Shown here piece after piece: positions 1 through 35,193 of a DNA stretch of 64,000 nt. This stretch comes from Streptomyces sp. CB02923. Its GTDB lineage: Bacteria; Actinomycetota; Actinomycetes; Streptomycetales; Streptomycetaceae. Location: positions 310,001 through 374,000 of the forward strand of contig NZ_LWKZ01000026.1 of assembly GCF_001905005.1 (NCBI RefSeq), in the 5' to 3' direction. The translations under genes were made by a program, and so were the position numbers. The notes below the pieces were generated by a model. That model saw only the letters and a program-made list of their open reading frames with translations. It did not search any database and was not told where the DNA came from. Position 1 is the stretch's first letter. Every line of letters begins with the position of its first letter.

Positions 1-479
1 TCGACGACCATGGGACAAAGAGCCCACGGTGGCGCAAGGCCCCATTCCTCGAAGAGGCTTTCGAGCCGATTTCTACGTTGCTCGTAGGCAAGCTCAGCCA
101 GGTCTTCACCGGCACGGCACAGAAGATCGAAGGCTACGTAGTGGGCCGGGCTTTGTACGATTTCGTGCCCTACCGTTACCGCCTTACGGTTCAGCAGACG
201 TTGCAGCCGACCAAAATCAAGTCGACCGTCATGCCAGATGACGAGTTCGCCGTCAAAGAGAACTTCCTCGGGAAGGTCGTGTTCCGCAACCGCAGCGATG
301 TCACCGAACGCCGCAGTCAGCGAAGTCCCCCGACACGAATGCAGGTACACCAACCCGCCGGCCGTCCGGCTCAGTAGGCAGCAGAAGCCGTCCCACTTGG
401 CCTCGAATCCGTAAGCACCGATCGCCGGCAGCTCGGCGACAGGCTCGGCCAGCATCGGAGCGACATCGGGCATCGGCAT
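1..479 (-). CDS. ATP-dependent DNA ligase, N-terminal part (cut by window edge)
   Basis: Translating the minus strand from position 479 gives 159 uninterrupted residues that run off the left edge. The motif EAKWDG around residue 28 is the nucleotidyltransferase active site, where the lysine takes AMP from ATP. FDGELVIW further on is the usual motif III. The opening APMLAEPV is typical of actinobacterial stand-alone or LigD-like ligases of about 310-360 residues. Such enzymes seal nicks and act in non-homologous end joining. Two close ATGs are possible (479 and 473); neither has a strong ribosome site. It points away from the rest of the window. The family call is firm; the subgroup cannot be told without the C-terminal half. 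Confidence 0.85.
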   Translation of the reverse strand, partial: MPMPDVAPMLAEPVAELPAIGAYGFEAKWDGFCCLLSRTAGGLVYLHSCRGTSLTAAFGDIAAVAEHDLPEEVLFDGELVIWHDGRLDFGRLQRLLNRKAVTVGHEIVQSPAHYVAFDLLCRAGEDLAELAYEQRRNRLESLFEEWGLAPPWALCPMVV

Positions 480-830
480 ACCCGGACACCTATCACCAGC
501 CCAAGGGAAACAGTGCGGCTCCATGCCGAGTCGACCTCAACTTCACCCGCTCTTCCAGCAGGTCAGGACGCTCCGCACCAAACAGGAACCCGCGCCGTGG
601 AGAGCAGCCGTACCATCACCGCATATGTGCTCTAGACGCCGTCAGGCACGCCTGGGCACTTTCCTTGGGAGAACGACGTTCGCTTACCCTTGACTCACTA
701 CCCGGGAGTTGCACCGAATCGACACACTGGTCCCATTTGGACACCCCTAGGCGACGCTGTGATATGCGCCTCAATTTCCGCAAGCCTACGCTGGACCGCA
801 ATACGCACGCCTTCCGTACTATGCCCAGGG
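480..830. other. Intergenic spacer between ligase and TetR relic
   Basis: This 351-base stretch separates two divergent genes. Short reading frames here have no recognisable family, and I see no gamma-butyrolactone-receptor box, strong promoter or terminator. Confidence 0.4.
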
Positions 831-1467
831 ATGACGAAAGAGACAGTGCAGCCAGTGCAGGAGCGAGCAGTCAAGACGTGCGAGAGGATCCTTCGGTCGG
901 CTTCCGAAGTGTTCGACGAATACGGCTACAGCGGCGCGAGCATCAGCAAGATCATGACCCGGGCCGAAGTCACCCCTGGTGCGCTGTACTTCCATTTTCC
1001 CGCGAAGGAATCCCTGGCCCATGCGGTCATGAACGAGCAAGGTGACGGGCTGGAGCTGCCGCCCGGCGAGGACGGCCTGCAACGCCTGGTCGACTTCACC
1101 CTCTACCTCGCGGGCGAACTGCAGGCCAACTCGCAGCTCCGCGCCGGAGTGCGGCTAGCCGTCGACGGGAGGAATCGGCGCCCCGGACGACACCCCGTAC
1201 CAATATTGGGTCGACCACTTCGCCGCGCAACTGCTCGCCGCCAGGGAAAAGGGCGAACTGCTGCCGGATGTGGACATACGCGAACTGGCCTGGATGCTGG
1301 TCAGCTCCTATTCCGGTACGCAGCTTCTCTCCCAGATCGCCGCCGGCCGCGCCGACCTGCACACTCGCCTGGTCGCACTGTGGCGCTACCTGCTGCCCGG
1401 CATCGCTGATCCCGGCGCAGCATCGCGCGTGACCTTCAGCAGGCAGTGGGACTGCCCAGCGGCGTAA
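831..1467 (+). pseudogene. Gamma-butyrolactone receptor-like TetR regulator, frameshifted
   Basis: The reading frame from ATG 831 encodes a TetR-type HTH very like the ArpA/ScbR receptors: RAVKTCERILRSASEVFDEY, GASISKIMTRAEVTPGALYF, then FHFPAKESLAHAVM. After RAGVRLAVDG, near 1165-1171, the match leaves this frame. It resumes one base on, at GGA 1171, as GIGAPDDTPYQYWVDHF, GELLPDVDIRELAW, then SGTQLLSQIAAGRADLHTRL and LWRYLLPGIA, ending at TAA 1467. The two pieces together give about 212 residues, the normal length for this family. One extra base (or two missing) therefore destroys the ligand-binding domain. It is either a pseudogene or a sequencing error. It converges on the NRPS operon and would once have been a plausible repressor of it. 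Confidence 0.85.
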
Positions 1468-1695: not shown

Positions 1696-2895
1696 CTAGG
1701 GTCGCCCCGCCCGGAGCGGCAATGCCCTGAGGCCGGTCATGTCCGGCGACGGCAGGAAGACCGGTGGATCGTCCGGGAGTGTGCGCAGCTCGGGAAACCG
1801 GTCCAGCAGGATGTTCAGCGCGATCCGGCCTTCCAGCCGGGCCAGCGTTGCGCCCAGGCAGAAGTGGATACCGCGGCCGAGCGCGAGGTGCGGATTGGGG
1901 TGCCGGGCCGGGTCGAACACTTCGGGGTCGGCGAACTGGCGCTGGTCCCTGTTCGCCGCCGCGGCCCACACCGCGAGCATGCGGTTCGCGGGAATCCGCT
2001 GTCCGGCGATCTCCACCTCGGTGGTGGTGACCCGGTAGATCAGTGCGGTCGGGGTCAAGAACCGGAGCGATTCCTCGATCGCGGTCGGCACCATCGAACG
2101 GTCGGCGCGCACCCGAGCCGCCTGGTCCGGGTAGCGGTCCAGGCACAGCATCGTGTTGCCGAGCATCATGGTGATGGTGTGGTATCCGGCGATCAGCAGG
2201 ATGCTCGCGAAGTTCATCACCTGGATGTCGGTGAGCCGTTCGCCGTCGACCTTGGCCTCGACGATCTTGGTCAGCAGGTCCTGCCGCGGCTTCCGCCTGC
2301 GTTCGGCGGCGTGTTCGTGGATGTAGTCGTTCAGAACTCGGTTCTGTTCCATCTGGGCCTGGAGGTTGCGTTCCTGCTCCTCCCTGCGGCTGATCAGCGA
2401 GAACTGGTGCATGGTCTCGAAGAGCTTGTCCACCCACTCCTTGAACATCGCGCGGTCACTGCTCGGTACGCCCAGCAGCTCGGCGATGACGGTCACCGGC
2501 AGCGGATACGCGAGATCGGCAATCAACTCGATGCGGTCCTGGCCCGCCACCGCATCGAGCAGCTCGTGAGTGAGCCTGTCGATCCGCGGCGCGAGGTCGG
2601 CGACGGACTTCGGGGTGAACGCGTGGCTGACGATTTTGCGTAGTTTGCCGTGCAGCGGCGGATCCGTCTGCACCATGTTGCCCTCGATGACCGACTCATC
2701 GATCTCGACGGGAAACAGCCGTGCGGTATCGGACGAGAAGGTCTTCGGATCGCTGAGGACTTCGAGCGCCTCTGGATAACCGTAGACCTGCCACGTGCCC
2801 AGTCGCTCGTCGTAATGTACCGGCTGTTCCGGTCGGTGTCCGCGCAGCCAGACATGTTGCGGATGGATGCCCCACTGGTCAGCAAGGATGGACAT
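1696..2895 (-). CDS. Cytochrome P450, tailoring enzyme of the NRPS operon
   Basis: Bacterial P450 of 399 residues. The ExxR motif is at about 275-278 (ESLR) and the heme loop ALGRGIHFCLG has its cysteine ligand near residue 346. The I-helix reads AGYHT (about 236-240) instead of the usual AGxE/DT, so the acidic member of the proton-relay pair is a histidine. The first Phe of the heme loop is Leu. Start ATG 2895 is chosen over an upstream in-frame ATG at 2934 because AAGGGGA lies just before it. It is the last gene of the NRPS-mbtH-P450 series, 168 bases after mbtH, so it probably oxidises the peptide or a carrier-bound residue. Redox partners are not adjacent; the nearest reductase is at 36.1 kb. 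Confidence 0.88.
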   Translation of the reverse strand: MSILADQWGIHPQHVWLRGHRPEQPVHYDERLGTWQVYGYPEALEVLSDPKTFSSDTARLFPVEIDESVIEGNMVQTDPPLHGKLRKIVSHAFTPKSVADLAPRIDRLTHELLDAVAGQDRIELIADLAYPLPVTVIAELLGVPSSDRAMFKEWVDKLFETMHQFSLISRREEQERNLQAQMEQNRVLNDYIHEHAAERRRKPRQDLLTKIVEAKVDGERLTDIQVMNFASILLIAGYHTITMMLGNTMLCLDRYPDQAARVRADRSMVPTAIEESLRFLTPTALIYRVTTTEVEIAGQRIPANRMLAVWAAAANRDQRQFADPEVFDPARHPNPHLALGRGIHFCLGATLARLEGRIALNILLDRFPELRTLPDDPPVFLPSPDMTGLRALPLRAGRP

Positions 2896-3063: not shown

Positions 3064-3282
3064 TCAGTGCGGTGGGTTGTCCATGGCGTCGATCAGGCTC
3101 TTGGGGCGCAGATCGGTCCAGTGCTCGTCGATGTAGTGCAGGCATGCTGGGCGGGTGTCGGCGGGATGGGCGACGGTCCACCCGGCGGGCACTTCGATGA
3201 AGGCCGGCCACAGGGAGTGCTGGCCTTCGTCGTTGACCAGGACGAGGTAGGTGCCGTCTTCGTCTTCGAAGGGGTTGGTCAT
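3064..3282 (-). CDS. MbtH-like protein
   Basis: A 72-residue protein with the whole MbtH signature: NPFEDEDG at the start, [14 protein letters not shown], and [17 protein letters not shown] near the end. MbtH-like proteins bind adenylation domains of NRPSs and are often needed for their solubility or activity. It starts four bases after the NRPS stop codon, and its ribosome site GGGAG overlaps the end of the NRPS gene, so the two are probably translationally coupled. This strengthens the case that the partner is the giant synthetase next door. Confidence 0.97.
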
Positions 3283-3286
3283 GGTC

Positions 3287-6200
3287 TCAGCTCCCTGGGG
3301 TGGGACGGTGCCGGTTGGTGCGGTCGAGTGCGGCGGTCAGGATGGGCCCGAGCTGGGCCAGCGCCTCGGGCCGCATCATGCGTTCGTGCCTGCTGGCGAC
3401 GGTGTGGAGGGTGATCCTGCCGTCGACGTACGGCTGCCACAGCTGCGGCGTCAGGCGGACGCCGGGCGGGGCGCTGGGGGACGGCTGGGTGGCGCCGAAC
3501 AGCAGCAGGTCGCCGTCGAACCGGCCAGGGGTGAATCCCCGCTGCAGCCGGATGTTGTTGTTGACAACGGCGGTGAGAGCCGCCAGGGTCCGCTCTTCCA
3601 GGAGTTCCGTCGGTACGGCGCCCTCGCGGCGCAGGATTTCCACCATGCGATCGAGGTCCAGCTCTTGCGCGGGCAGGGTTTCCCCGCCGTAGCCGGCGAT
3701 GTCGAGGAAGGCGGCGAGGATGTTCCGCTCGCTGAGCGAGGGCATCTCCTCGCCGGATTCCAGGCCGGGTGGGTAGGCGTCCAGCAGGGTCAGCAGGGCG
3801 ACCTCCTCGCCCTCGTCTCGGAGCCGGGTGGCCAGGGCATGGGCCGCGACACCGCCGAAGGACCAGCCGAGCAGGTGGTAGGGCCCGGACGGCTGGACCG
3901 TGCGGATCTGCTCCAGGTAGTCGGCGGCCATCTCTTCCAGCGAGGCCGGGAGAGCTTCCGGACCGGCCAGCCCCCGTGCCTGGAGCCCGTAGAGCGGATG
4001 CTCCGGGCCGAGATGACGCATCAGCCCGGCGTAGGGCCAGCTGATCCCCCCGGCCGGATGGACGCAGAACAGCACCGGTCGGCTGCCATGGGGGCGTAGC
4101 GGCAGCAGGACCTCCAGCCCTCGTCCGGACGGGCTGGTGTCCATCGCCTGGGCCAGGCCCGCCGGAGTGGGGGTCTGGAAGAGGGCGCGGACCGGCAACT
4201 CGACGCCGAAGGCCGCCCGTACACGGGCGATCAGGCGGGTGGCCAACAGGGAGTGCCCGCCCAGCTCGAAGAACCCGTCGTCGACACTCACCGCGGGCAG
4301 GCCCAGCACCTCGGCGAAGAACTCGGCGAGCAGCTGCTCCTGTGGTGACCTCGGCGCTCGGCCGGTCCCGGCGGAGCGCGGTGCCGGAGCCGGCAGCGCG
4401 TTGCGGTCCAGTTTTCCGTTGGCGGTCAACGGCAATGCGTCGAGCTTGATGAACGCCGATGGCACAAGGTAGTCGGGCAGCCGCTCGCGGAGGTAGTCGC
4501 GCAACTCGTCGATCAGCGCGCTGCTTTCGCGGAGGGCTGTCGGGTTGTTCGTCCACGATGACAGTGACGTGCCGGCGGTGACGCGTGGCTGGTACAGGTC
4601 GAGGGGAATGGCTGACGGTGTCGGTGCGGTGTCGGCGAAGACGATGTCCACGGTGTCCTCGGAGGCAGCGGACCAGGTGATGCCCGCCCAGTAGCCGCTT
4701 TGCCGCGCGAGGTCGTGGAACGCTTCGGGGTCGACGAGACCGTCGTCGTGCGGGGCGTGCAGCCGATCCAGCAGTTCCGCGAGCGGAGTACCGCCCGCCT
4801 GCAGGGCCTGCGCCAGGCAGGTTTCGCGTACGACGCGGCTGTTCGGCACTCCCGTGATCCGAAGCCGGTTCGGACGCTGCACGGTCAGCACGTCACGTAG
4901 CGCGGGCAGCCCGTCGATCTGCCGGCCCCAGCTGAGCTCGGTCGCCGCGTCGAGTGGCAGCGGGGTGATGGGGTGTTTGTGCAGGGTGATGTCGTAGCGG
5001 TAGCGGGTCAGTTCGTTGTGGTGCTTGCCGCGTTTGGTCTGGAGGGTGACTCCGGCGATGTCGTCGGCCTGGTCCTGGAGCGTGGCGAAGAACTCCGGGT
5101 CGATGAGGAGTTCTTTTTCGCTGAGGAGGGCTTGCTCGACGGCGCGGTGCAGGGTCGGCAGGTCGGTGGTGGGGTCGGCTTTGTGGAGCTGTACTGCGGT
5201 GACCAGTGTCCTGAGGAGTCGGAGATTGCGTACGTCGCCGATGAAGACCGTTCCGCCGGGGGCGAGCAGTCGTAGGGCCTGGGTGAGTACGTCGACGAGA
5301 TAGCCGGTGGTGGGGAAGTACTGGACGACGGAATTGAGGATGACGGTGTCGAACGTGCCGTGGGGCAGGCCGTCGGTGTGATGTGCGGGTCGGGTGTGCA
5401 GTACGACGCGTTCGGCGAGTTCGGGGTCCTGGCTTACCCGGCCGGCCAGCGCGTTGATCGCTGGGGCGGAGAAGTCGGTGGCCCAATAGGTTTCACAGTG
5501 CGGCGCGATCCGGGACAGCAGCAGTCCACTGCCGACGCCGACTTCCAGGACCCGTCGAGGGTCCAGTGCCAGAATCCTTGTCACGGTCTCGTCGCGCCAT
5601 TCGCGCATGTGCTCGACGGGGATCGGATGTCCGTCGTAGCTGCTGTTCCATCCGGCGAAGTCCTCACCGAAGGCCGCTGGGTCGGATGCGGCGGGAAGTG
5701 ACTCGTAGGTCTCCCGCCACTCAGTGACATGTTCTTGTTCCAGCTCCACGTCCCGAACCTGTCGGGAGTCTCCCTTGGCGACCACCACGTAGGCGGTGAG
5801 CCGTGTGTCGTCGTCCCGGTCCTGGCGGGCGACGACTGCCGTCTGGGCGATGTCGGGACGGGTGGCCAGTACCGCCTCGATCTCTCCCGGTTCGATGCGG
5901 AAACCGCGCACCTTGATCTGGTCGTCCACCCGCCCGACGAACTCCAGCTCCCCGTCCGCGCGCCAGCGCACCAGGTCGCCCGTGCGATACATCCGGGACC
6001 CCGTCCGCCCGTACGGGTCGGCCACGAACCGCTGCCCGGTCAAGCCGGGCTGGTTCAGATAGCCGCGCGCCAACCCCGCACCCGCGATATACAGCTCCCC
6101 TGCCGCACCGGCGGGTACGGGTTGGAGTCCCGGGTCGAGCACGTAGACCCGGCTGTTGGTGATGGGCCGGCCGATCGGTGGCGTCTGGAGCGAGGGGGAC

Positions 6201-9200
6201 AGCGGATCGCTCATCGTGGCACACACCGTGGTCTCGGTCGGACCGTAGGCGTTGAACATCCGGCGGCCCGATGACCACCTGGAGACCAACTCCGGTGTGC
6301 ACGCCTCACCCGCCACCACGAGCGTCGACACCGACGGCGACAGCCCGTCCTGCCCCAGCGCCGCCAAGACCGACGGTGGCAACGTCACATGTGTCACGCC
6401 CTGCCCCGGGTCGGCCAACGCCGTCAGCGGAGATCCGCAGGGCGCCAACACCAGCGTCGCGCCGGACAACAACGCCATGCACAGCTCCCAGAATGATGCG
6501 TCGAAACTGGGCGAAGCGAACTGGAGAATCCGGCTGCCGGCCTCGATCCGCAACCGTTCGGCCTGCGCGGCAGCGAGGCTGGCGATGCCGCCATGGCTGA
6601 CCAGCACCCCCTTGGGTCGCCCGGTGGAACCCGAGGTGTAGATCAGGTAGGCCAGATGCTGCGGTGTCACGGGGACGACGGGGGCGGTATCCGGGTACCG
6701 GTCCGTCGCCATGACGGTCTCAGGATCATCGACCAGCAGCGCGGGCCGCGCGTCTTCGAGAGTGAACGCGATCCGGGCCTCCGGATACTCCGGATTCACC
6801 AGCAGATACGCCGCTCCCGCCTTCAGCACCCCAAGGATCGCCACCACCAGCTCAGGTGAACGAGGCAACATCAACGCGACCGTCTGCTCCGGACCCACAC
6901 CCTGGGCGATCAAGGCGTGCGCCATCCGGTTCGCCCGTGTGCGGAGTTCCTTGTAGGTGACCGCGGTGTCCCCGCACACCACTGCTACCGCGTCCGGATG
7001 GGCTCGCACCTGAGCCTCGAACAACGTCGGCAGAGTGGCGACGGGAACCGGGGCCGCGGTGTCGTTCCGGTCGACCAGCAGTCGGTGACGCTCGTCGGCG
7101 GAGAGCACGTCGATGGCGCCGAGCGGCCGGTCAGGGTCGGCTGCTACGGCTTCCAGCAGTCGTGTCCAGCGGGCGATGAGGGTTTCGACGGTGGAGGGGT
7201 CGAACAGGTCGGTGGCGTATTCGACGATCCCGGAGATGCCATGAGGTGTGCCATCCGGGTTGTGCCGTCCGAAGAGGCTGAAGCCCAAGTCGAATTTGGC
7301 GGTACTGGTGGGTGCCGCCAGGACGGACACGTGGAGGCCGGGCAGTTCGAAGGTGCCTGTGGGCGCGTTCTGCAAGGCCAGCATGGACTGGAACAAGGGG
7401 TGGTGGGCCAGGGAGCGGGTGGGGTTGAGGGCCTCGACGAGGCGCTCGAAGGGGATGTCCTGATGGGCGTAGGCGGCGAGGGAGTTCTCCCGTACCCGGG
7501 TGAGCAGTTCGGTGAAGGACGGGTCGCCCGAGGTGTCGGTGCGCAGGACGAAGGTGTTGACGAAGAAGCCGACGAGATCGTCCAGGGCCTGGTCCGCGCG
7601 TCCGGCGATCGGACTGCCGATCGGGATGTCCGTCCCCGCGCCGAGTCGGGTGAACAGCGCCGCAAGTCCCGCCTGGAGCACCATGAACAGACTGGCGCCT
7701 GCCTGGCGTGCCAGGCCGGCCAGCCCGGCGTGGAGCTCGGGAGTCAGCTCGACGGTGAGGTGGTCGCCACGGTAGGACGCCACCGCCGGACGCGGCCGGT
7801 CGGTCGGCAACGAGAGTTGGCCGGGCAGGCCGGACAACGCATCGGTCCAGTACGCGAGTTGCGCGGCCATCAGGCTGTCGGGGTCGTTCTGGTCGCCGAG
7901 GAGGTCACGTTGCCAGAGCGTGTAGTCGGCGTACTGCACCGCCAGCGGGGCCCAGTCAGGTTCCTCGGCGTGGCACCGGGCGGCGTACGCGGTGGTGAGA
8001 TCGCGTGACAACGGGCCCATGGACCAGCCGTCACCGGCGATGTGGTGCACCACGACCAGCAGGACGTGCTCATCCGGCGCGAGCGTCAACAACTGCGCCC
8101 ACACCGGCGGCTCAACGGTGAGATCGAACGGGTGCCGGGCAGCCGCGGCCAGAGCCGCTTCCAGCTCGTCCCGGCTGATCGTGACCGTCTCCAGTGGTGG
8201 ACGGGCGTCGTCCGGGTGGAGCACTTGCTGGCGTGGCACTCCCGCGGTGTCGGGGAATACGGTGCGCAGGCTTTCGTGGCGTCCAACGACGTCGCTCAGT
8301 GCGGTCCGCAGGGCCAGCACGTCCAGTTCACCGGTCAACCGCATGGCCAGGGGGATGTTGTAGGTGGGGGAAGGGCCTTCCAGGTGATGGAGGAACCAGA
8401 GGCGTCGTTGGGCGAAGGACAGCGGCAACGTTCGGGGCCGGGGTGCTGGCGCCAGGGCCGGCCGTGCCGCCGCGGCGCCTTCCAGCTTTCGGGCCAGTCC
8501 GGCCGGCGTGGGGGCGTGGAAGAGGGTGCGTACTTGAAGTTCGACGTTGAAGACGGTGCGGGTCCGGGCGACGAGGCGGGTGGCGAGGAGGGAGTGTCCG
8601 CCCAGGTCGAAGAAGTTGTCGTCGGCCCCGACGGTGGGCAGCTCCAAAACCTGGGCGAACAGACCGCACAGCACGTCCTCGGCCGCTGTACGGGGCCCTC
8701 GCGAGGACAAGGCCGCGCCGACGTCCGGAGCGGGCAGGGCACTGCGGTCGAGTTTGCCGTTGGCTGTCAGGGGCAGGGCGTCCAGGGCCACCACGGCCGC
8801 GGGCACCATGTACTGCGGAAGCCGTTCGGCGGTGAACGCCCGTACCTCGACCGGGTTCAGCGCGACCCCGTTGGCGGGCACGACGTAGCCGATGAGGCGT
8901 TTGTCGCCGGGGGATTCCTCCCGCACCACTACCGCTGCCTGGGCCGCCTGCGGGTGGGCGGCCAGGACGGCCTGGACCTCACCCGGCTCGATGCGGAATC
9001 CGCGGATCTTGACCTGGTCGTCGGCCCGTCCGAGGAATTCCAGCTGTCCGTCCGCGCGCCGGCGCGCGAGGTCGCCCGTGCGGTACATGCGAGCCCCGGC
9101 CGGGCCGAACGGGTCGGCGACGAACCGCTGACCGGTCAGAGCGGGCCGGTTCAGGTAACCATGCGCCAGCCCCGCCCCAGCGATATACAGCTCCCCCGCG

Positions 9201-12200
9201 ATACCCGGAGGCACCGCTCGCAGGGCCGCGTCCAGCACATGGACACGGGTATGTGCAACCGGCCGGCCGATAGGCGGCGCACCGGTCTGCCCGTCGAGGT
9301 CCGCCACGGTCGACCAGATGGTGGTCTCCGTCGGGCCGTACAGGTTGGTCACGTGTCCTGCGACCTGCTGCAGCTCCGCCGACAGGCCGGCCGGCAACGC
9401 TTCCCCGCCGACGAGCAGCCGCACACCGCGTACGGCCTCGCTGTCGGCTGCCAGTAGTGCCTGCCACAGGCTCGGCGTGGCCTGCATGATGGTGGCTCCG
9501 GCCGCCGCGACCAGTTCGGCCAAGGCCGGGGGGTCCTGTACCGACTCCCGTGCGGCGATCACCACGCACGCACCGCTGATCAGCGGCAGATACAGCTCCA
9601 GGGCGGCGATGTCGAACGCTACGGTCGTCACCGCCACCAGCCGGTCGCCTTCTCCCATCGGGAAGTGCTCCCGCATCGCGGCCAGGAAATTCGTCAGGCC
9701 CGCGTGCGGCACGACAACGCCTTTGGGGGTGCCGGTGGAGCCGGAGGTGTAGATCACGTAGGCGGGGTGTGCCGGAGTGGGGAGAGGGGTGCGGCCGAGG
9801 TCGGCCGGGGCGGTTTCGGGGCAGGCAGCCAGCGCTTCGACGGTGGTGGGGGCATCCAGGACCAGGAGGGGAACGGTGGTTCGTGGGAGCCCGCCGGCGA
9901 TCTCACCGGTGGTGATCAGCAGGGCAGGAGCGGCGTCATGGAGCAGGAACGCCAGGCGTTCGTCGGGGTGGGACGGGTCGAGGGGCAGGTAGGCAGCCCC
10001 GGCTTTGAGGACGGCCAGCAGCGCGGTGATCAGTTGCGCCGAGCGGGGCAGCGCCAGCGCCACGACACGTTCCGGCCCTGCTCCGGTGGCGATGAGCCGC
10101 TGGGCCAGACGGTTCGCAAGGGCATCCAACTGCGCGTAAGTCACCCGCTCTTCGCCTGCCCGCACGGCTACCGCGTCCGGAGTACGGGCCACCTGGGCTT
10201 CGAAGAGCTGCGGCAGAGCGGCTGCCGGGATTTCCGGGGCAGTGGTGTTCCAGTCGGCCGGCAGTTGGTGACGTTCTGTGGGGGTGCGGAGATCGATCCG
10301 GCCGATGGGTTGGTGCGGTGTGGTGGCAACGGCGGTCAGGAGGCGTTCCAGCCGGTCGAGGACGGTCTCGATGGTAGTCCGGTCGAAGATCTCGGGTCGG
10401 TGGTCCAGACGCAGATGCAGGTGTGGCCCCGGCACGGCGGTGAGGCTGAGGGGGTAGTGGGTGGCGTCGTGGCCCCGGATGCCGGTGACGTGCAGGCCGG
10501 TGTCGGCCGGCTGGAGGGCAGTGGCGTCGAGGGGGTAGTTCTCGAAGACGAGGAGAGTGTCGAACAGTTCGGGGTGGCCAGTCAGGCGGTGGAGGTCGGT
10601 CAGGCCGAGATGCTGGTGGGCGATCAGTTGGGACTGTTCGTCCTGGAGGCGGGTCAGGAGTGCGGTCAGGGGTTCGGCCGGGTGGAGGCGTACGCGCACC
10701 GGCACCGTGTTGATCAGCAGACCGACCATGGTCTCCACGCCGGGGATCTGCGGATCGCGTCCCGACACGGTGACGCCGAAGACCACGTCATTGTGGCCGG
10801 TCAGGTGGCTGAGCAGGACGGCCCAGGCGCCCTGGAGAAGGGTGTTGAGTGTGAGGCCGTAGGTGCGGGCGGTGGTCTGGAGAGCAGCGGTGAGTTCGGC
10901 GGGCAGCTCGCGGACCATCCGCTGGGGTGGTTGTGAGGTGCGGGCGAGGTCGGCTGCCGGGGCGATGAGGGTGGGTCCGTCCAGGTCCGCCAGCGCCTGC
11001 CGCCAGGCGGCTTCGGCGGCTGTCCGGTCCTGCCCGGCCCGCCAGGCCAGGAAATCCCGGTATCGGGGAGCCGGGCCCAGCCCGGCACCATTTCCACCAG
11101 CAGCATGGAGGGCGAACAGCTCCCGCAGGAGTACCGGCGTCGACCAGCCGTCCAGCAACAAGTGGTGGTTGGTGAGGAGTAGTCGGTGACGGCGGGGGGC
11201 CAGGCGGATGAGCGTCATACGGAGCAGCGGACCGGCGACCAGATCGAACCGGCGGGCCCGGTCGGCGCCCTCCAGCTCGGCCAGTTCGACTCGCTGGGCG
11301 GCCGGGTCCAGCCCGCCCAGGTCGTGCTCCTGCCACGGCAGGGTGGCGCGGCCGGGGATGGTCTGTACCGGCCGGCCCAGTCCCTGGTGGTGGAAACCGG
11401 CCCGCAGGTTGGGGTGCCGCTCCAGCACCCCCTGACCGGCCGCCCGCAACGCCGCCGCGTCCAACGGCCCCTCCAGCTCCAGGACCAGCTGCACGGCGTA
11501 CACGTCCGTGGCCTGCGTGTCGTAGAGGGCGTGGAAGAGCAGCCCCTCCTGCAGCGGAGTCAGCGGCCAGATGTCGGCCAGCCCCGACCCGGCAGCCTGC
11601 GGTTGCCCGTCGTGCTGGGTGCGGGGCGCCTCCAGGTGCTCGATCTGGTCCTGGGTCAGTTGCACCAACGGCACATCCGAGGGAGTCAGCCCGCCCGCGC
11701 CATTGTCGACGCACGTGATGATGGCCTCCAGCACGGCGAACCACGCCTGCGCCAGCTCGGCGACTTCCTGCTCCTCCAGCAGGGCACTCGCCCAGGACCA
11801 GGTGGTCATCAGCTGCGGGCCGGCGGGGCCGTCGTGGGTAAGTGCGTTGACCTCCAGTGGGTGGGGCAGCGGCATTCCCGTATCCCCGTCCTCACCTACT
11901 ACCGCACCCGTCTCGTCGGCCACTGGCGTCCACAGCCTCTGGTCCCCGGGTGTGCCCAGGCGGCCGAGGTAGTTGAATCCCACTTGCGCGGCAGGCAGGT
12001 CGGCCAGCTGAGCTGCGGTCTCGGGGTTGAGGTAGCGCAGCAGCCCGTAGCCCAGGCCATCGCCGGGCACCGCGCGCAGTTGTTCCTTTACGCGTTTGAC
12101 CGCCCGTCCCAGCGCAGCCCTGTCGGCCTTCATCTGCTGCGGGGTCAGCTCCCCGGCTTCCAGCCGGACCGGGTAGCTACTGGTGAGCCAGCCCACCGTG

Positions 12201-15200
12201 CGGGAGAGGTCCACGCCTGCGGCCAGGTGTTCGTGCCGGCCGTGGCTCTCCACATCCACCACCGTCCCGCCCTTCTGACTGCCGTGGCGTCGCCACTGCC
12301 CCAGTGCCACGGCGAGAGCGGCCAGCAGCACGTCCTGGACGCCGGCGTGGAAGGCGGTCGGCACCCGGGTCAGCAGCGCAGCGGTCGGTTCGGTCGGCAG
12401 GGTGAGCGTCAGCTGTGCGGCGGTGCCGGTCACGTTCCGCCCGGTTCCTGGGGCCTGGCCGGAAAACAGAGGCTCGGCGTCTTGCAGGATTCGCCTCCAT
12501 GCCGGCAGTTCGGCTGCCCGTTCAGGGCGGTGGGCCTCGGTGGTGAGCAGGTCGGCCCAGCGGCGTACCGAGGTGCCCACCGGGTGCAGGGGTGCGGGCC
12601 GGCCGGCTGACGCTCCGTGCCAGGCGGCTTGCAGGTCGGGAAGCAGAATCCGCCAGGAGACTCCGTCAACCACCAGATGGTGGATCACCAGCAGCAATCG
12701 GCCAGGCCGGGCCGGCCCCGCATCGCACCACACGGCCTGGAGCATGACCCCCGCCTGCGGGGCCAGCCTCGCACGGGCCTCCGTGAACTGTTCGGCCATC
12801 ACCGCCCGGAGACTGTCGTCGTCCGGTGTGGCCGTCTGCACACGGCGAATCCACCCTTCGGCGGGGGTTGCTCCGGGGGGAGGTACTTCCAGGGCCCAGC
12901 TTCCCTGCGGCCCGATGTTCAGCCGGGACCTGAGCATGTCGTGGTGATCGACCAGGGCCTGCACCGCCCCGGCGAGCCGCTCCAGGCCCGCCCCTGCCGG
13001 CACCTCCACCAGCATCGCCTGGCAGAACCCGTCGACCGGGCCGCCCCACTGCCGCCACCACTCCGCAATCGGCGTCGGCGCGATGTCACCGATTCCCACA
13101 TCCGCGGCTGTCGGAGTCTCGTTGTGGTCCTGTTGCGTAGCCACCGCGGCCAGACCGGCCACCGTCTTGTGGGCGAAGACATCCCGCGGGGTGATCACCA
13201 TGCCTGCCGCTCGTGCCCGCGCCACCACTTGAATCGCCAGGATGCTGTCCCCGCCCAGATCGAAGAAACCCTCCTCGGCCCCGACCGCGGGCAGGCCCAG
13301 AACCTCGGCGAACATGTCGGCGAGCAGTTGTTCCTGTGACGTCCTTGGTGCTCGGCTGGTCCCGGCGGCACCCCGTTCCGGAGCCGGGAGTGCGCTGCGG
13401 TCGAGTTTTCCGTTGGGGGTCAACGGCAACGCGTCCAGGCGGACGAACGTGGCGGGCATCATGTAGTCGGGGAGCCGTGTCCGCAGGTGGTCGTGCAACT
13501 CGTTGATCAGCGCGCTGGTTTCGCGGAGACCCGTCGGGTTGTTCGTCAGCGATGACAACAGCGTCCCGGTGGTACCACCGGGTGGTGGGCACAGGTCGGT
13601 GAGGATGGCTGACGGCATCCGCGTCGTGTCGCCGAGCACGATGTCCACCGTGTCTTCGGTGGTGGAAGACCAGGTGATGCCGGCCCAGTAGCCGCATTGC
13701 TGCGCGAGGCCGTGGAATGCCTCGGGATCGATGAGGTTCTCGTGATCGTCGTTCGTGGCGTGCAGCTGGGCCAGCAGGTCCGCGACCGGGGTGTCGTCGG
13801 CCAGTACTGCCTTTGCCAGAGCGGTTTCTCGTACGACGCGGTGGTTCGGCACTCCGGTGATCCGCAGTCGAGCTGGACGTCGCGTCGTGAGGAACTCACT
13901 CAACTCGCTCAGCCCCTCGACGTGCCGTCCCCAGACAAGCTTGTCCGGTTCCTTGAGAGGAAGCGGAGTGATCGGGTGTTTGTGCAGGGTGACGTCGTAG
14001 CGGTATCGGGAGAGTTCGTTGCGGTGTTTACCGCGTTTGGTCTGGATGGAGACGCCGGCGACGTCGTCACAGTGGGCTTGCAGCGTGGTGAAGAACTCCG
14101 GGGCGATCAGGAGTTCCCTTTCGGACAGGAGGGCCTGCTCCACTGTGCGGCGCAAGGTCGGCAAGTTGGTGGCGGGATCGGCTTTGTGCAGCTGCACGGC
14201 GGTGGTCAGGGCCCGCTGCAGCCGTAGGTTGCGTACGTCACCGATGAACAGGGTGCCGCCAGGGGCGAGTAGCCGGAGTGTCCGGGTGAGTACGTCGACG
14301 AGGTAGTCGGTGGTGGGGAAATACTGGACGACCGAGTTCAGGATGACGGTGTCGAACATGCCGGCCGGCAGTCCGTTGGTGTCGTGTGCGGGTTGTGTGC
14401 GCAGCACGACCCGTTCGGCCAGTTCGGAGTGCTGGTCCACCTGGTCGGCCAAGGTGTTGACGGCCGTGGCAGAGAAATCGGTGGCCCAGTAGGTTGCGCA
14501 GTGCGGTGCGATCCGGGAGAGCAGCAGTCCGCTGCCGACGCCGACTTCCAGTACGTGGTGGGGGCGCAGTGCCAGGATGCGTGCCACGGCCCCGTCGCGC
14601 CATTCCCGCATGTGCTCGACCGGAATCGGGCTGCCGTCGTAACTACTGTTCCATCCGGAGAAATTCTCGCCGAAATCCGCCTGGTTCCAGGTAGCTGGAA
14701 GTGTGTCGTAGATATCCCGCCACTCTCGGACGTGGTCTTGCTCCAGCCGGTTGTCGCGGTGGCGACGGGTGCCGTTCCCGGTCACGAAGTAGGCGACCAG
14801 GCGCTTGTCGTCCGGCCGATCCGGCTGGTCCTGCCGGGCGATCACCGCGACCCGGGTGATTTCGGGGTGGTCGGTGAGCACTGCTTCGATCTCGCCGGGT
14901 TCGATGCGGAATCCGCGTACTTTCACCTGGTCGTCGGTCCGGCCGAGAAACTCCAGCTGTCCGTCCGCCCGTCGGCGCACCAGATCTCCAGTGCGGTACA
15001 TACGCGACCCCGACGGGCCATAAGGGTCAGCGACGAACCGCTGACCGGTCACACCCGGCCGATTCAGATAACCACGCGCCAACCCCGCCCCCGCCACATA
15101 CAACTCCCCCGCCACACCCGAAGGCACCAACCGCAAACCCCCGTCCAAAACATACGCACGGGCATGCGCCACCGGCCGACCAATCGGCGGCACCCGCAGC

Positions 15201-18200
15201 GACGGAGACAACGGACCACTCATCGTCGCGCACACCGTGAACTCCGTCGGACCATAAGCATTGATCATCCGCCGACCCGACGACCACCTGGACACCAACT
15301 CCGGCGAACAGGCATCTCCCCCCACGACCAATGTCACCGAAGGCGGCACGCCGTCCTCCGGCAAGGCCGCCAGCACAGAGGACGGCAACATCGCGTGCGT
15401 CACGCCCGAATCCGGGTCGGCCAATGCCGTCAGCGGAGATCCGGACGGCACCAACATCAGTGTGGCGCCCGACAACAGTGCCGTACACAATTCCGAGAAC
15501 GATACGTCGAAACTGGGGGAGACGAATTGGAGAACGCGGCTGTCGCAGTTGACCCCAAGCCGTTCGACGTGTGCCGCGACCAGGCCGGCGATTCCCGTGT
15601 GGCTCACGACCACCCCCTTGGGGGTGCCGGTGGAACCAGAGGTGTAGATCACGTACGCCGGATGCTGCGAACTCAACGCAACACCTGGGTTCGTCTGCGG
15701 GCCGGCTTCCTCGTTCCTGACGTTCTCCAGTCGGTCAACTACCAGTACCGGTCGAGCGTCGCCGAGCATGAACGCGATCCGGGCAGCCGGATAATCCGGG
15801 TCCACCGGCAGATACGCTGCCCCTGCCTTCAACACCCCAAGGATCGCCGCCACCAGCTCAGGTGAACGAGGCAGCTGCAACGCGACAATCTGCTCCGGAC
15901 CGACACCTTGAGCGATCAAGGCATGCGCGAACTGATTGGCCCAGGCATTCAGCTCGCAATAGGACCAGACGTCACCTGCGGACATCAGCGCTACCGCATC
16001 GGGCGTTTCCGCCACCTGAGCTTCAAACAATGCAGGCAAGGTGGTGACGGGGACCGGGGCCGCGGTGTTGTCGCAGTTCTCCAGCAGTTGGTGACGTTCG
16101 TCGATGGAGAGCAGATTGATTACGCTGATAGGCCGGTCGGGATCGGCGACCACAGCTTCGAGCAGGCGCGTCCAGCGGGCGAGAAGGGTTTCGACGGTGG
16201 AGGGGTCGAACAGGTCGGTGGCGTATTCGATGATCCCGAAGATGCCCTGAGGAGTGCCGTCCGGGTTGTGTCGTTCGGACAGGCCGAAGCCGAGGTCGAA
16301 CTTGGCGGTACGGGTCGGTGCCGGCAGGACGGACAGGTGAAGGCCGGGCAGTTCGAAGGTGCCCGCGGGGGCGTTCTGCAACGCCAGCATGGTTTGGAAC
16401 AAGGGGTGGTGCGACAGTGAGCGGGTCGGGTTGAGGACATCGACAAGATGCTCGAAGGGGATGTCCTGATGGGCGTAGGCGGCCAGCGAGCCCTCCCGCG
16501 CACGGATGAGCAACTCGGTGAAGGTCGGGTCGCCCGAGGTGTCGGTGCGCAGGACGAAGGTGTTGACGAAGAAGCCGACGAGATCATCCAGCGCCTGGTC
16601 GGTGCGCCCGGCGATCGGACTGCCGATCGGGATGTCGGTGCCCGCACCCAACCGGGTGAACAATGCCGCAAGCCCCGCCTGTAGCACCATGAACAGACTG
16701 GCCCCCGACCGACGCGCTACAGCAGTCAGCCCGGCGTGCAACTCCGCAGTCAGCTCGACCGGGATGTGGTCGCCGCGGTAGGACGCCACCGCGGGACGTG
16801 GCCGATCGGTCGGCAGGACGATGCACTCGGGCAGCCCTGCCAAGGTCCTCTTCCAGTAGGCAAGCTGTGTGGCGATCAGGTTGTTGCTGTCGCCCTCGTC
16901 GCCGAGGAGGTCGTGCTGCCACAGGGTGTAGTCGGCATACTGCACCGGCAACGGCACCCAGTCAGGATCCTCGCCTCGGCATCGTGCGGCGTAAGCGGTG
17001 GTGAGGTCGCGCGACAACGGCCTCATCGACCAGCCGTCACCGGCGATGTGATGCACCACGACCAACAGCACATGCTCGTCCGGCGCCAGTGCGAACAACC
17101 GTGCCCAAACCGGTGGTTCGGCTGTCAGGTCGAACTGGTGGCGAGCCGCCACGGTCAACCGATCTGACAGGTCGGCCTCGCGGCTTTCCACGACCGCCAT
17201 CCGGGGGCGGGCCACGTTCGCGTCAAGCACCAGCTGGCACGGCACGCCGGCGGTATCGGGGAAGGTGGTGCGCAACGCCTCGTGCCGCTCGACCACGTCC
17301 CCCAGCGCGTTCCGCAGGGCCTCCACCTCCAACCCGCCGGACAACCGCATCGCCAGGGGGATGTTGTAGGTGGGAGAGGGTCCTTCCAGGTGGTGCAGGA
17401 ACCACAGTCGCCGTTGGGCGAAGGACAGCGGCAGTGTTTCCGGCCGGGGCACCGGGACCAGGGCGGGCCGTGCTACCCCGGCGCCCTCCACTTCCCGGGC
17501 CAGGCCGCCCGGGGTGGGCGTCTGGAAGAGGGTGCGCACCTGCAACTCGACACCGAAGGCCACCCGTACGCGGGCGATCAGACGGGTGGCCAACAACGAA
17601 TGCCCGCCCAGCTCGAAGAAGCTGTCCTCGACCTCCACCGTGGGCAGGCCCAGGACCTGGGCGAACAGGCCGCACAGAATCTCTTCGGCCGCTGTGCGCG
17701 GCCCCTGCGGGACCGAGGCCGCACCGTATTCCGGGGCGGGCAGGGCGTGGCGGTCCAGCTTGCCGTTGGCCGTCAGCGGCAGTGCATTCAGGGGCACTAC
17801 CGCCGCAGGCACCATGTACTGCGGCAAACGCCCGGCGACAAAGGCGCGGACCACGGCCGGCTCCAGCACCGCCCCTTCCGTGGGGACCACATAGCCGACC
17901 AGTCGTTTGCCACCAGGACGGTCCTCGCGCACCACCACGGCTGCCCGGCCCACCTGCGGATGCGCTGCCAGGGCGGTGGCCACCTCGCCGGGTTCGATGC
18001 GGAATCCGCGTACTTTCACCTGGTCGTCGGTCCGGCCGAGAAACTCCAGCTGTCCGTCCGCCCGCCGACGCACCAGATCTCCAGTGCGGTACATACGGGA
18101 CCCCGACGGGCCATAAGGGTCGGCGACGAACCGCTGACCGGTCACACCCGGCTGCTTCAGATAACCACGCGCCAACCCCGCACCCGCCACATACAACTCC

Positions 18201-21200
18201 CCCGCCACACCCGAAGGCACCAACCGCAACCCCCCGTCCAGAACATACGCACGGGCATACGCGACCGGCCGACCAATCGGCGGCACCCGCAGCGACGGAG
18301 ACAACGGACCACTCATCGTCGCGCACACCGTGAACTCCGTCGGACCATAAGCATTGATCATCCGCCGACCCGACGACCACCTGGACACCAACTCCGGCGA
18401 ACACGCCTCACCCGCCACCACGAGCGTCGACACCGACGGCGACAGCCCGTCGTCCTCCAACGCCGCCAACACCGACGCCGGCAGCGTCACATGGGTCACG
18501 CCCACATCTGGGTCGGCCAACGCCGCGAGCAGGGTCGCGGACGGCGCCAGCACCAACGCAGCGCCTGACAGCAGTGCCGTACACAACTCCGAGACCGACG
18601 CGTCGAAACTGGGTGAGGCGAACTGAAGAATCCGGCTGTCGGCCTCGATCCGGAACCGTTCGATCTGCGCGGCGGCAAGGCCGGCGATGCCGCCATGACG
18701 GACCAGCACCCCCTTGGGCCGCCCGGTGGAACCCGAGGTGTAGATCAGGTAGGCGGGGTGCGCCGAGGTGAGGGGGCCGGCGCGGTCGTCATCGTCCGGT
18801 GCGGAGTCCGGGCAGGCGGTCAGGGCTTCGGCGGTGGCCGGGTCGTCCAGGATCAGGTGGGGAACGGTGGTCCGGGGCAGCCTGTCGGCGGTCTCATCGA
18901 GGGTGACCAGCAGGGTGGGGGTGGCCTCGCGCAGCATGAACGCGATGCGTTCCGGTGGGTAGTCAGGGTCGACGGGCAGGAAGGCAGCGCCGGTCTTCAG
19001 GACGGCCAGCGTGGAGGTGATCAGGTGCGCCGAGCGGGGCAGTACCAGCGCCACGATGTGCTCCGGCCCCGCCCCATGAGCGATCAGCAGGTGGGCCAGG
19101 CGGTTGGCCCGGGAGTCCAGTTGCGTGTAGGTGAGCTGTTCGTCCGTTGCCCGGATGGCGATCGCGTCAGGGGTGCGCGCGGCCTGGGCCTCGAACAACT
19201 GAGGCAGCGTGGTCGCGGGCAGTTCGTGGGCGGTGGTGTTCCCCTCAGTCAGGAGTTGGTGGCGCTCGACGGGGGTGAGCAGGTCGATGTCACCGATTCG
19301 TTGCTCAGGAGCCGCAGCGAATGCCGTCAGCAGTCGGTGCAGGCGGTCGAGGACGGTCTCGATGGTCGCCCGGTCGAACAGGTCGGTGTTGTACGCGATC
19401 GTGCCCTCGATGCCGGCCGGTGTCCCATCAGGGGCGGGGCGCTCGGACAGGGAAAAGGCCAGGTCCATCTGGGCGGTGCCGGTCGCCACCGGCACCGTGC
19501 GGGACTGCAGGCCGGGCAGTTCCAGCCCGGTGCTCCCGATGTTCTGCCAGGCGAGCATGGTCTGGATCAGCGGGTGGTGGGCGAGTGAGCGGGGCAGGTC
19601 GAGGGCCTCGATGAGGTGCTCGAAGGGGACGTCCTGGTGGGCATAGGCGTCCAGGCTTCGCTCACGTACTCGCGCGACGAGCTCCCGGACGGTGGGGCGG
19701 CCGGAGGTGTCCACACGCAGCACCAGGGTGTTGACGAAGAAGCCGACGAGGTCGTCCAGCGCCTGGTCGGTGCGCCCGGCGATCGGAACGCCGATGGGGA
19801 TATCGGCGCCTGCCCCCAGGCGGCTCAGCAGCGCAGCCAGCCCGGCGTGCACCACCATGAACACGCTCGCCCGACAGGCCCGAGCCAGCCCGGTCAGTCC
19901 GGCGTGCAGCTCTGGTTCCCACTGAAACGTGAGGTTTTCCCCGTGGTGGGACGCCTGCGGTGGGTGGGGCCGGTCGACCGGCAAGGAGATGCGCTCGGGC
20001 ACTCCCGCCAGTGCCTGTTTCCAGTACGTGAGCTGGGTGGCGAGCAGGCTGTCCGGGGCGTCCGGGGCACCGAGGAGTTGGTGCTGCCACAGGGTGTAGT
20101 CGACGTAGTGCGCCGGCAGCGGATGCCAGGCGGGGGCTTCCCCGAGGCACCTGGCCGCGTACGCGGTGGTGAGATCACGGGACAACGGGCCCATCGACCA
20201 TCCGTCGGCAGCGATGTGGTGCACCACCACCAGCAGCACGTGTTCGTCGGGGCCGAGCGCGAGCAACTGTGCCCGCAAGGGCGGCTCGGCCGCCAGGTCG
20301 AACGGGCGCCGCGCCATTGCCGTCAGCTCCGCCTCCAGGCCGCCCTCGCCGACGCTGACCACCTCCAGCGACGGCCGGGCGCAGCAGGCGTCGAGCAGCT
20401 GCTGGCGCGGTACTCCGGCGGTGTCGGGGAAGAGGGTGCGCAGACTCTCGTGGCGTTCGGTCACGTCCGCCAGTGCGTTCTGGAGCGCCTCCCTGTTCAG
20501 CTGACCGGTCAGGCGCACTGCCAGAGGGATGTTGTAGGTGGGGGAAGGCCCTTCCAGGCGGTGCAGGAACCACAGTCGTTGCTGGGCGAAGGACAAGGGG
20601 AGTGTGTCGGGCCGGGAGACAGGCGCCAGGGCCGGTCGCGCTGCCCCGGCCCCTGGGAGTTCCTGGGTGAGTCCGGCTGGAGTGGGAGCCTGGAAGAAGG
20701 TACGGACCTGGAGCTCGACGCCGAAGGTGGTGCGTACTCGGGCGATGAGACGGGTGGCGAGGAGGGAGTGTCCGCCCCGGTCGAAGAAGTTGTCCTCGGC
20801 CCCGATGGCGGGCAGGCCCAGGACCTCGGCGAACAGGCCGCACAGGATTTCCTCGGCCGCTGTGCGCGGACCTCGTGATACGGAAGCCGCGTCGTAGTCG
20901 GGAGCGGGCAGGGCGCGGCGGTCGAGTTTCCCGTTGACCGTCAGCGGCAGGCTGTCCAGGGGCACTACCGTCGCGGGCACCATGTACTGCGGCAGCCGCT
21001 CACCGACGAAGGCCCGTAGGGCGGATGACTCCAGCTCAGTGACATCGGTGGTGTCAGTGGGGACGACATAGCCGATCAGGCGTTGGTCACCGGGACGGTC
21101 CTCGCGCACCACCACTGCCGCGTGGGTGACCCGGGTATGCGCGGCAAGCGCGGCCTCGATCTCGCCCAGCTCGATCCGGAAGCCACGGATCTTGACCTGC

Positions 21201-24200
21201 TCATCCACGCGTCCCAGAAACTCCAGCTGCCCGTCCGCCCGCCGACATGCCACATCCCCGGTCCGGTACATCCGCCCGCCGGGCGGTCCGAAGGGATCAG
21301 CCACAAACCGCTGCGCGGTCAGGCCGGGCCGGTTCAGATACCCGCGGGCCAACTGCGTGCCCGCCACGTACAGCTCGCCGGGAGCACCCACCGGCACCGG
21401 TCGCAGCCCCGCGTCCAACACGTACACCCGGGTGTTCCACACCGGGCTGCCGATAGGTACCGCTCCGGTGTGACGAGCCGGAAGGACGGTGGAGGCGGTG
21501 ACGTCGATGGTGGTCTCGGTGGGGCCGTAGAGGTTGTACAGATGCGCGTCGAGGGTGGCGCCCACGCGTGTCACAAGGTCCGGTGCCAACTCTTCGCCGC
21601 TGGTGACGACCAGGCGGATGCTCTCGCACCGTGCGGCACTCGCTTCGTCGATGAACACCCGCAGCATCGACGGGACGAAGTGCAGGGCGGTGACGGAGGT
21701 GGCTCGGACGAGTTCAGCGAGGTACTTCGGGTCCTCGTGCCCATGGGGGCGGGCTACGACGAGTGTGGCGCCGACGGACAGGGGCCAGAAGAACTCCCAG
21801 ACGGAGACGTCGAACGTCGCCGGCGTCTTCTGGAGCACACGGTCGTGCTCGGAGAGCGCGTACGTACTCTGCATCCACAGCAAGCGGTTCACCAGGGAGG
21901 CGTGCTCGATGGTGACGCCTTTGGGGGTTCCGGTGGAACCGGAGGTGTAGATCACATAGGCGGGATGACGGGGATGGATGGGCCGGTTCCGGTCGGTGTC
22001 GGTGATGGCGGAGGCCGGGATATCGGCCAGGTCCCCGGTAGCGGGAAGGCACACGGGCACCCCAGCGTCTGGGAGGGCCGGCACGGTTTCCGCATCAGCC
22101 AGGACGCAGAGCGGCTGAGAGTCCTCCAGCATGTGCGTGGTGCGTGCTGGAGGGTGGTCGGGGTCGAGGGGGAGGTAGGCGGCGCCGGTTTTGAGGACGG
22201 CCAGCAGCGCGGTGATGAGTTGCGCCGAGCGGGGCAGTGCCAGCGCCACGATGCGTTCCGGTCCCGCACCTCGTGCGATCAGCCATCGGGCCAGCCGGTT
22301 GGCCCGGGCCTCCAGCTGCGCGTAGCTGAGTTCCTCTTCGCCGCAGATCACCGCGGCGGCCGCGGGCGTGCGGGCGGCTTGGGTCTCGAAAAGCTGCGGC
22401 ACCGTGGTGCGGGGAAGCTCGTGGGCGGTGTCGTTCCAGCCGTTCACGAGTTGGCTGCGCTCGGCGGGGGTGAGGAGATCGATCTGCCCGATGGATTGGT
22501 CCGGGTCGGCTGCGAAGGCGGTCAGAAGACGTTGGAACCGGTCGAGCAGGGTATCGATGGCAACCCGGTCGAAGGTGTCGGGGCGGTAGTCCAGTCGCAG
22601 ATGGAGGCGTGGTCCGGGGACAGCGATGAGGCTGAGGGGGTAGTGGGTGGTGTCGCGGCTCTGGATGCCGGTGACGTGCAGGCCGGTGCCGGCCGGCTGG
22701 AGGGCGGCGGTGTCCAGGGGGTAGTTCTCGAAGACGAGGAGGGTGTCGAACAGTTCGGGGTGGCCGCTCAGGCGGTGGAGGTCGGTCAGGCCGAGATGCT
22801 GGTGGGCGATCAGCTGGGACTGTTCATCCTGGAGGCGGGTCAGGAGTGCGGTCAGGGGTTCGGCCGGGTGGAGGCGTACGCGTACCGGCACCGTGTTGAT
22901 CAGCAGACCGACCATGGTCTCCACGCCGGGAATCTGCGGATCGCGTCCAGACACGGTGGTACCGAAGACGACATCGGTGCGGCCGGTCAGGTGACCGAGC
23001 AGGACGGCCCAGGCGCCCTGGAGGAGCGTGTTGGCTGTCAGGCCATGGGCGCGGGCGGCGACCTGGAGTGTGGTGGTGAGTTCGGCGGGCAGCTCACGGA
23101 TGACACGCCGGGGCTGCTGCGGGACATGGGCAGGGCCGGCTGCGGAGGCGATGCGGGTGGGGCCGTCCAGACCGGCGAGCACCTCTTGCCAGGCGGCCTT
23201 GGCGGCTGCTTGGTCCTGTCCGGCTCGCCAGGCCAGGAACTCCCGGTAGCGGGGAGCCGGGCCCAGCCCGGCCCCCTCTCCACCAGCGGCGTAGAGGGCG
23301 AACAGCTCCCGCAGGAGTACGGGCGTCGACCAGCCGTCCAGCAACAGGTGGTGATTGGTCAGGAGCAATCGAAAGCGACCGGGAGCCAAGCAGACAAGCG
23401 TCATGCGCAGCAGCGGACCGGCGACCAGATCGAACCGGCGGGGCCGGTCGGCGCCCTCCAGCTCAGCCAGTTCGGCTTGCTGGGCGGCCGGCTCCAGCCC
23501 GCTCAGGTCATGCTCCTGCCATGGCAGGGCGACGCGGCGGGGGATGGCCTGCACCGGCCGTTCCAGCCCCTCGTGGTGGAAACCGGCCCGCAGAGTGGCA
23601 TGCCGCTCCAGCAACCCCTGACCAGCCACCCGCAACGTCGCCGCATCCAACGGCCCCTCCAGATCCAAGGCCAGCTGGACGTTGTAGACGTCCGCGACAT
23701 CGGTGTCGTAGAGAGCGTGGAAGAGCAGCCCCTCCTGCAACGGAGTCAACGGCCAGACGTCGGCCAGCCCCGGCCCGGCAGCCTGCGGTTGCCCGTCGTG
23801 CTGGGTGCGGGGCGCCTCCAGGTGCTCGATCTGGTTCTGGGTCAGTTGCACCAGCGGCGTGTCCGAGGGGGTCAGCCCGCCTGCGCCGTTGTCGACGCAC
23901 GTGATGATCGCCTCCAGCACGGCGAACCACGCCTGCGCCAGCTCGGCGACTTCCTGCTCCTCCAGCAGGGCACTCGCCCAAGCCCATTCCGCCACCAACC
24001 GCGGTCCGGCAGGCCTCTCACGGGTGTGCGCATTGACCTCCAGAGCATGCGGCAAGGGCATCCCCGAATCCCCGCCCCCGCCCAGCACCGCGCCCAGCTC
24101 GTCGGCCACCGGCGCCCAGAATTCCCCACCACCGGGTGCGCCCAGGCGGCCCAGGTAGTTGAACCCCACCTGCGGGACGGGCAGATCGGCCAACCGGGGA

Positions 24201-35007: not shown

Positions 35008-35043
35008 CCCCCTGTGACCTGCAAAAATGCAGGTCACAGGGGG
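35008..35043. terminator. Perfect 16-bp inverted repeat, probable terminator
   Basis: The arms CCCCCTGTGACCTGCA (35008-35023) and its exact complement (35028-35043) enclose four A residues. There is no U-tract on either strand, as is common for Streptomyces terminators. It could end transcription from either side, or serve as a protein-binding or recombination site. Confidence 0.6.
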
Positions 35044-35193
35044 GATGATCGACATCACGCACACCTGAGTCGGACGATCCCCCGCGTCGCCCGACTCAGG
35101 CAGCTCGGCCGGAGTCCTGGCCGCGTCGGGGCGGACATCCGGAGACCTGCTGAGTATATTGGCTCTCAGCCAGTCAACGCAGGAGTTAACAGC

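What the first reader, a model, noticed from the sequence alone, without database searches (positions are those of the whole stretch)
831..1467. Broken gamma-butyrolactone receptor at the end of the NRPS operon
A full-length ArpA/ScbR-like protein can be rebuilt by correcting one base near 1170. If real, the loss of a repressor could have altered control of the peptide operon; no partner synthase gene is seen.
Basis: seen in the sequence. Interest (0 to 1): 0.55.

Follow-up and report, generated by a model that had tools for sequence, protein, structure and literature searches.

The report
Broken spare butyrolactone-receptor gene
A gene for a hormone-sensing repressor beside a peptide-making gene cluster has lost its reading frame, but three close and intact copies lie elsewhere in the same genome, so this is most likely the recent death of a spare copy rather than the loss of a main switch.

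Summary
The core observation holds: at 831-1467 (+) two halves of one ScbR/AvaR1-type autoregulator receptor lie in different frames, each with strong family matches. Three details are wrong. The gene is a net two bases short against its relatives rather than one base too long. It is convergent with the NRPS operon, not part of it. The genome does hold AfsA-type synthases, at three loci outside the window.

Three intact paralogs (73-81% identical over the N half) remain. The gene falls in a clade with a resident receptor and with extra copies found near mobilisation genes, a prophage terminase and a cas operon. It lies left of the point where synteny with the two nearest relatives found begins. 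Coding constraint is visible on both sides of the break, so the break is recent or an artefact. A 25.2-kb unbroken NRPS frame nearby and a truncated neighbouring ligase favour real decay.

No operator-like site was found at the NRPS promoter, but the true operator is unknown. An effect on the peptide is unproven. Verdict: probably a recent pseudogene of a redundant member of a well-known family. The extra receptor copies near mobile DNA are the more curious lead.

The parts
831..1175 (+). N-terminal half of the receptor: TetR DNA-binding domain and first part of the ligand domain (start may be 846)
   Evidence: PF00440 1.3e-13; ScbR_bind_reg profile 1-110; AvaR1 15-121
1163..1185 (+). Stretch that holds the frame break, net two bases short against relatives
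   Evidence: Alignments
1174..1467 (+). C-terminal half in the other frame, with the stop that ends the normal gene
   Evidence: ScbR_bind_reg profile 116-190; AvaR1 133-216; translation
1176..1409 (+). Out-of-frame tail of the first frame, rich in Arg and Pro, ending at a stop
   Evidence: Translation
812..822 (+). Upstream motif TTCCGTACTAT, shared in similar form with the C1, C23-type and third copies; possible promoter or operator element
   Evidence: function inferred
1..479 (-). ATP-dependent DNA ligase gene (runs off the window to C26:309717), truncated at its C-terminus
   Evidence: Profile 6-253 of 350, 155.7 bits against a cut-off of 296; only PF01068 found
1696..2895 (-). Cytochrome P450, convergent with the receptor
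   Evidence: PF00067 2.1e-33 on the longer frame 1696-2934
3064..3282 (-). MbtH-like protein
   Evidence: PF03621 2.4e-29
3287..28495 (-). Six-module NRPS, 8402 aa, uninterrupted: six A, six C, two E, six carrier domains, two methyltransferases, one thioesterase
   Evidence: E told from C by motif

Best explanation
This is a recently inactivated spare copy of an AvaR1/ScbR-type autoregulator receptor gene. The intact gene would have made a TetR-family repressor that releases DNA when a diffusible butyrolactone or butenolide hormone binds. A small indel, net two bases short, now separates the DNA-binding half from most of the hormone-binding and dimer-forming half, so no working repressor should be made. 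The copy belongs to a clade with a resident receptor and with extra copies that lie near mobile DNA, and it sits left of the conserved chromosome part. Three intact close paralogs remain and could cover the same operators. Nothing but adjacency ties it to the peptide operon. Shown: broken frame, family, paralogs, convergent layout. Inferred: that it is dead in the living strain, that the loss is covered by paralogs, and that the effect on the peptide is small.
For: Both halves match one family in consecutive ranges. Net two-base loss against relatives. Three own-genome paralogs at 81, 77 and 73% identity over the N half pass the family cut-off of 150 bits with 204, 210 and 212. Pairwise dN/dS of the window gene against nine relatives is 0.07-0.26 before the break and 0.31-0.70 after it, against 0.00-0.23 and 0.05-0.45 for pairs of intact copies, so most of its history was under constraint. 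The normal stop is kept. Against an error: an uninterrupted 25,209-base NRPS frame in the same window and a truncated ligase next door. The P450 of the cluster has no ortholog in G052 or G064 (best 41%).
Against: No reads and no second strain could be examined, so an error is not excluded. dN/dS after the break exceeds the intact range in three of nine comparisons (0.55, 0.61, 0.70), but synonymous sites are near saturation and the numbers are rough. The clade placement is not firm: 96/87 in a 29-row tree, 91/90 in a 37-row tree, and a clade of the window with the C23 group alone is not rejected, p-AU 0.405. The upstream DNA does not resemble that of own C1 (120 of 500 shuffles score as high). 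Redundancy is inferred from identity alone.
Confidence: 0.72

Rival explanations
1. Sequencing or assembly error: the gene is intact in the living strain and encodes a fourth working receptor of this group.
For: Coding constraint on both sides of the break and a normal stop. None of the 36 aligned relatives is broken here, though they were chosen by long DNA matches.
Against: A net change of two bases is not the commonest kind of read error (recalled). The same window has a 25,209-base unbroken frame, and the adjacent ligase is truncated too.
Confidence: 0.2
2. One reading: the receptor repressed the peptide operon, and its loss switched on or altered NRPS expression.
For: It lies next to the cluster. 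Deleting an ArpA-like regulator woke the scl cluster (PMC13307308, start of abstract in the listing). A natural ScbR variant altered cluster regulators (PMC3461410, abstract).
Against: Convergent, with the NRPS start 27 kb away. No ARE-like site in the window and the group's upstream motif only in front of the receptor. Intact paralogs with similar DNA-binding halves remain.
Confidence: 0.12
3. The split gene still acts: by ribosomal frameshifting, or as a truncated DNA-binding half that interferes with the paralogs.
For: Heterodimers of AvaR1/AvaR2 and of ScbR/ScbR2 are described (PMC5744401, passages). A GGGAGGA stretch like a ribosome-binding sequence lies at the break.
Against: No stop follows at the break and the first frame runs on for about 230 bases. 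None of 36 relatives has such a break. The dimer-forming helices of TetR proteins lie in the lost part (recalled).
Confidence: 0.03

Closest known systems
AvaR1, avenolide receptor of Streptomyces avermitilis (PDB 6WP7, 6WP9, 6WPA; PMC5744401)
   Same: Best solved match of both halves, in consecutive ranges; same family as the intact paralogs
   Different: AvaR1 is intact and acts with neighbouring receptors on known promoters (PMC5744401, passages); the window gene is split and its targets are unknown
ScbR family autoregulator-binding transcription factor (NCBIfam NF041196)
   Same: The two halves together cover profile 1-110 and 116-190 of 191
   Different: Split over two frames; no AfsA gene beside it
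Own-genome receptors at C1, C23 and C28
   Same: 81, 77 and 73% identical over the N half; same clade
   Different: Intact, above the family cut-off; C28 is divergent from an AfsA gene, and C23 and C28 lie in loci conserved in G052 and G064
ScbR-M600, natural ScbR variant of S. coelicolor (PMC3461410)
   Same: A naturally impaired receptor of this family (abstract and outline)
   Different: A single residue change with reduced DNA binding, not a frame break

Membership tests
ScbR/ArpA-type autoregulator receptor | N-terminal TetR helix-turn-helix of the family | tested here: met
ScbR/ArpA-type autoregulator receptor | Family-type ligand-binding half | tested here: met
   Present, but in another frame
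ScbR/ArpA-type autoregulator receptor | One open frame that codes for the whole receptor | tested here: not met
   a remnant of a member, not a working member as sequenced
ScbR/ArpA-type autoregulator receptor | Binding of a butyrolactone or butenolide and release of DNA | not testable with these tools
   Needs protein
ScbR/ArpA-type autoregulator receptor | ARE-like operator near its targets (recalled as typical) | tested here: inconclusive
   No match in the window; two in the own ScbR/AfsA locus; this group's own operator is unknown
Member of the NRPS operon | Same strand and direction as the NRPS genes | tested here: not met
Receptor with a partner synthase beside it | AfsA gene next to the receptor | tested here: not met
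   AfsA genes only on C24, C28 and C8

The most novel reading that the evidence does not exclude
A branch of butyrolactone receptors spreads with mobile DNA (near mobilisation genes, at a prophage edge, in a cas locus, in an NRPS island) and plugs such elements into the host's hormone signal. In two relatives the copy is divergent from a phage terminase-side gene or from its fused start, so a bacterial hormone could gate a prophage. The window copy would be a member that has just died.
Probability: 0.15. Interest if true: 0.6.

Novelty: new member of a known kind. Interest (0 to 1): 0.25.

Why it matters
Removing a receptor is a known way to wake silent clusters, so it helps to know that this one is probably a dead spare and that the intact paralogs and the three AfsA loci are the better handles on the six-module NRPS. 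If extra receptors really travel with mobile DNA, it would show how hormone control is moved between clusters and elements.

Tried and rejected
Phage origin: the intact C23 paralog has no match in 50,697 phage records at E 1e-10. A scan of viral contigs gave 9 pattern stretches, none confirmed. Plasmids carry the family widely (248 of 72,556 records, best 67.6% identity), which is ordinary.

No ortholog of the whole locus was found. The NRPS itself was not searched as DNA in other genomes.

The published AvaR1 consensus (PMC5744401) had no exact match in the window and none in the seven other loci scanned, the ScbR/AfsA locus included, so it told nothing. A palindrome pattern taken from that locus was used instead.

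That the missing end of the ligase survives in another frame was read by eye. It had no family match, and the only other ligases found at E 1e-30 were 32-34% identical, so it is dropped.

Row dropped: of 29 receptor loci extracted, own_C24b proved to be a second extraction of own_C24a and was left out of trees and counts. The comparison set was chosen by DNA matches at E 1e-40 in 392 genus genomes (21 with a match, own included) and at E 1e-60 in 394 family genomes (10 with a match, own included), with at most two matches scored per genome, so weaker or broken copies would be missed.

Papers: listings only (25 of 126 shown; 1; 10; 3; 0; 0; 12 of 22). Passages of PMC5744401 and of PMC7357120 (its frameshift is in cmlI, not a receptor). 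Abstract and outline of PMC3461410. The terms butyrolactone receptor, prophage and Streptomyces gave one paper, a review on antibiotics and resistance; ScbR, pseudogene, receptor and biosynthetic gene cluster gave none. The library lacks most subscription journals.

Full report
What is there. The window is G000:C26:310001-374000 of a 9.57-Mb genome in 29 contigs. At 831-1467 on the + strand lies one receptor gene split over two frames. The first half, 831-1175, matches the TetR DNA-binding domain and positions 1-110 of NCBIfam ScbR_bind_reg. The second half, about 1174-1464 in the other frame, matches positions 116-190 of the same model. Both halves find AvaR1 as the best solved structure, in consecutive ranges.

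The lesion. Alignments with three own-genome paralogs and with two further copies show that the window lacks a net two bases between about 1163 and 1185. From RAGVRLA to the conserved Trp it has 70 bases; of 36 aligned relatives 34 have 24 residues (72 bases), one 23 and one 25. Which event happened cannot be told.

Age and reality. Pairwise dN/dS against nine relatives is 0.07-0.26 before the break (36 pairs of intact copies: 0.00-0.23) and 0.31-0.70 after it (intact pairs: 0.05-0.45). The three values above the intact range are against own C28 and its two orthologs; synonymous sites are near saturation, so all this is rough. The normal stop is kept. The gene was under constraint for most of its history, so the break is recent, or it is an error. 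An error is less likely because the same window holds an uninterrupted 25,209-base NRPS frame and because the neighbouring DNA ligase is truncated as well (profile 6-253 of 350, 155.7 bits against a cut-off of 296). Reads were not available.

Redundancy. Own-genome receptors at C1, C23 and C28 are 81, 77 and 73% identical to the window's N half and pass the family cut-off. Six AfsA-domain matches fall at three loci, C24, C28 and C8, none in the window. At C28 the receptor and an AfsA gene are divergent neighbours. The gene order around C28 is conserved in relatives G052 and G064, and so is the gene order on one side of C23.

Clade and surroundings. In a 29-row tree the window groups with own C1 and with the third copies of G052 and G064 (96/87). 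In a 37-row tree that support is 91/90, and the window with the C23 group instead is not rejected (p-AU 0.405); the 7-row clade of all these has 98/94. The 140 bases upstream resemble the third copies most (1 and 0 of 500 mononucleotide shuffles score as high), then own C23 (5 of 500); own C1 shows no such likeness (120 of 500). Third-position GC of the window gene (0.80 and 0.81 for the two halves) is close to that of the third copies and C1 (0.70-0.79) and below most values of the resident copies (0.82-0.97).

Where the extra copies lie. Own C1 lies beside a gene for a MmyB-type regulator, about 7-8 kb from genes for a MobC/NikA-like protein and a relaxase. The G052 third copy is divergent from a small gene without Pfam match that precedes a terminase large subunit, with a phage major capsid gene in the same stretch. 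The G064 third copy is divergent from a gene that begins with the same residues as that small gene (seen by eye) and continues as Cse2, followed by CT1975-type (Cas7) and Cas5 genes. That the small gene is a terminase small subunit is inferred from its position.

Island. From about 35,010-35,050 rightwards to at least 48,800, where the query ended, the window is syntenic with G052 and G064. To the left, matches are scattered or are other receptors. The P450 of the cluster has at best a 41% match in these two genomes. The NRPS was not searched there as DNA.

Relation to the peptide operon. The P450, MbtH gene and six-module NRPS are on the - strand, convergent with the receptor; the NRPS starts at 28,495. 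The motif TTYCGTACYAT, seen in similar form upstream of several group members, occurs in the window only at 812-822 with up to one mismatch. An ARE palindrome pattern with up to three mismatches has no match in the window (0.56 expected by chance) but two in the genome's ScbR/AfsA locus. The operator of this group is unknown, so this only weakens the regulatory reading.

Conclusion. Most likely a recently broken and probably redundant receptor of a well-known kind, next to an otherwise unbroken NRPS gene. Whether its loss changed peptide production cannot be said from sequence. The more unusual lead, extra copies near mobile DNA, rests on four copies in three genomes, and no phage record or viral contig searched carries the gene.

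Noticed in passing
L164:9676-11429 (G064) and L163:7496-10465 (G052): Close receptor copies are divergent from a small gene next to a phage terminase large subunit (G052), and from a fusion of the start of that small gene with Cse2 at the head of a type I-E cas operon (G064).
   Followed up: partly
L028:9490-19901 (own contig C1): An intact receptor paralog lies beside a MmyB-type regulator gene and about 7-8 kb from MobC/NikA-like and relaxase genes.
   Followed up: partly
L030:10343-10400, with L161 and L162: About 70 bases up to the start of the AfsA-linked receptor are identical in three genomes while the DNA further up diverges: an AT-rich block that may be this group's operator.
   Followed up: no
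window 1-479 and C26:309717-310479 (L027:14716-15480): ATP-dependent DNA ligase gene next to the receptor lacks roughly the last quarter of its family profile.
   Followed up: partly
L032:9541-10524 (own contig C8): A third AfsA-type gene lies in what looks like a long biosynthetic gene row, with no receptor among the genes read around it.
   Followed up: no
L160:2-2412 and L159:150-2171: In G052 and G064 the C23-type receptor lies about 7-8 kb from a gene that looks like a thioesterase-P450 fusion, in G064 preceded by a carrier-protein-like end, so it may also be near a biosynthetic cluster (read by eye, P450 part by weak likeness).
   Followed up: no
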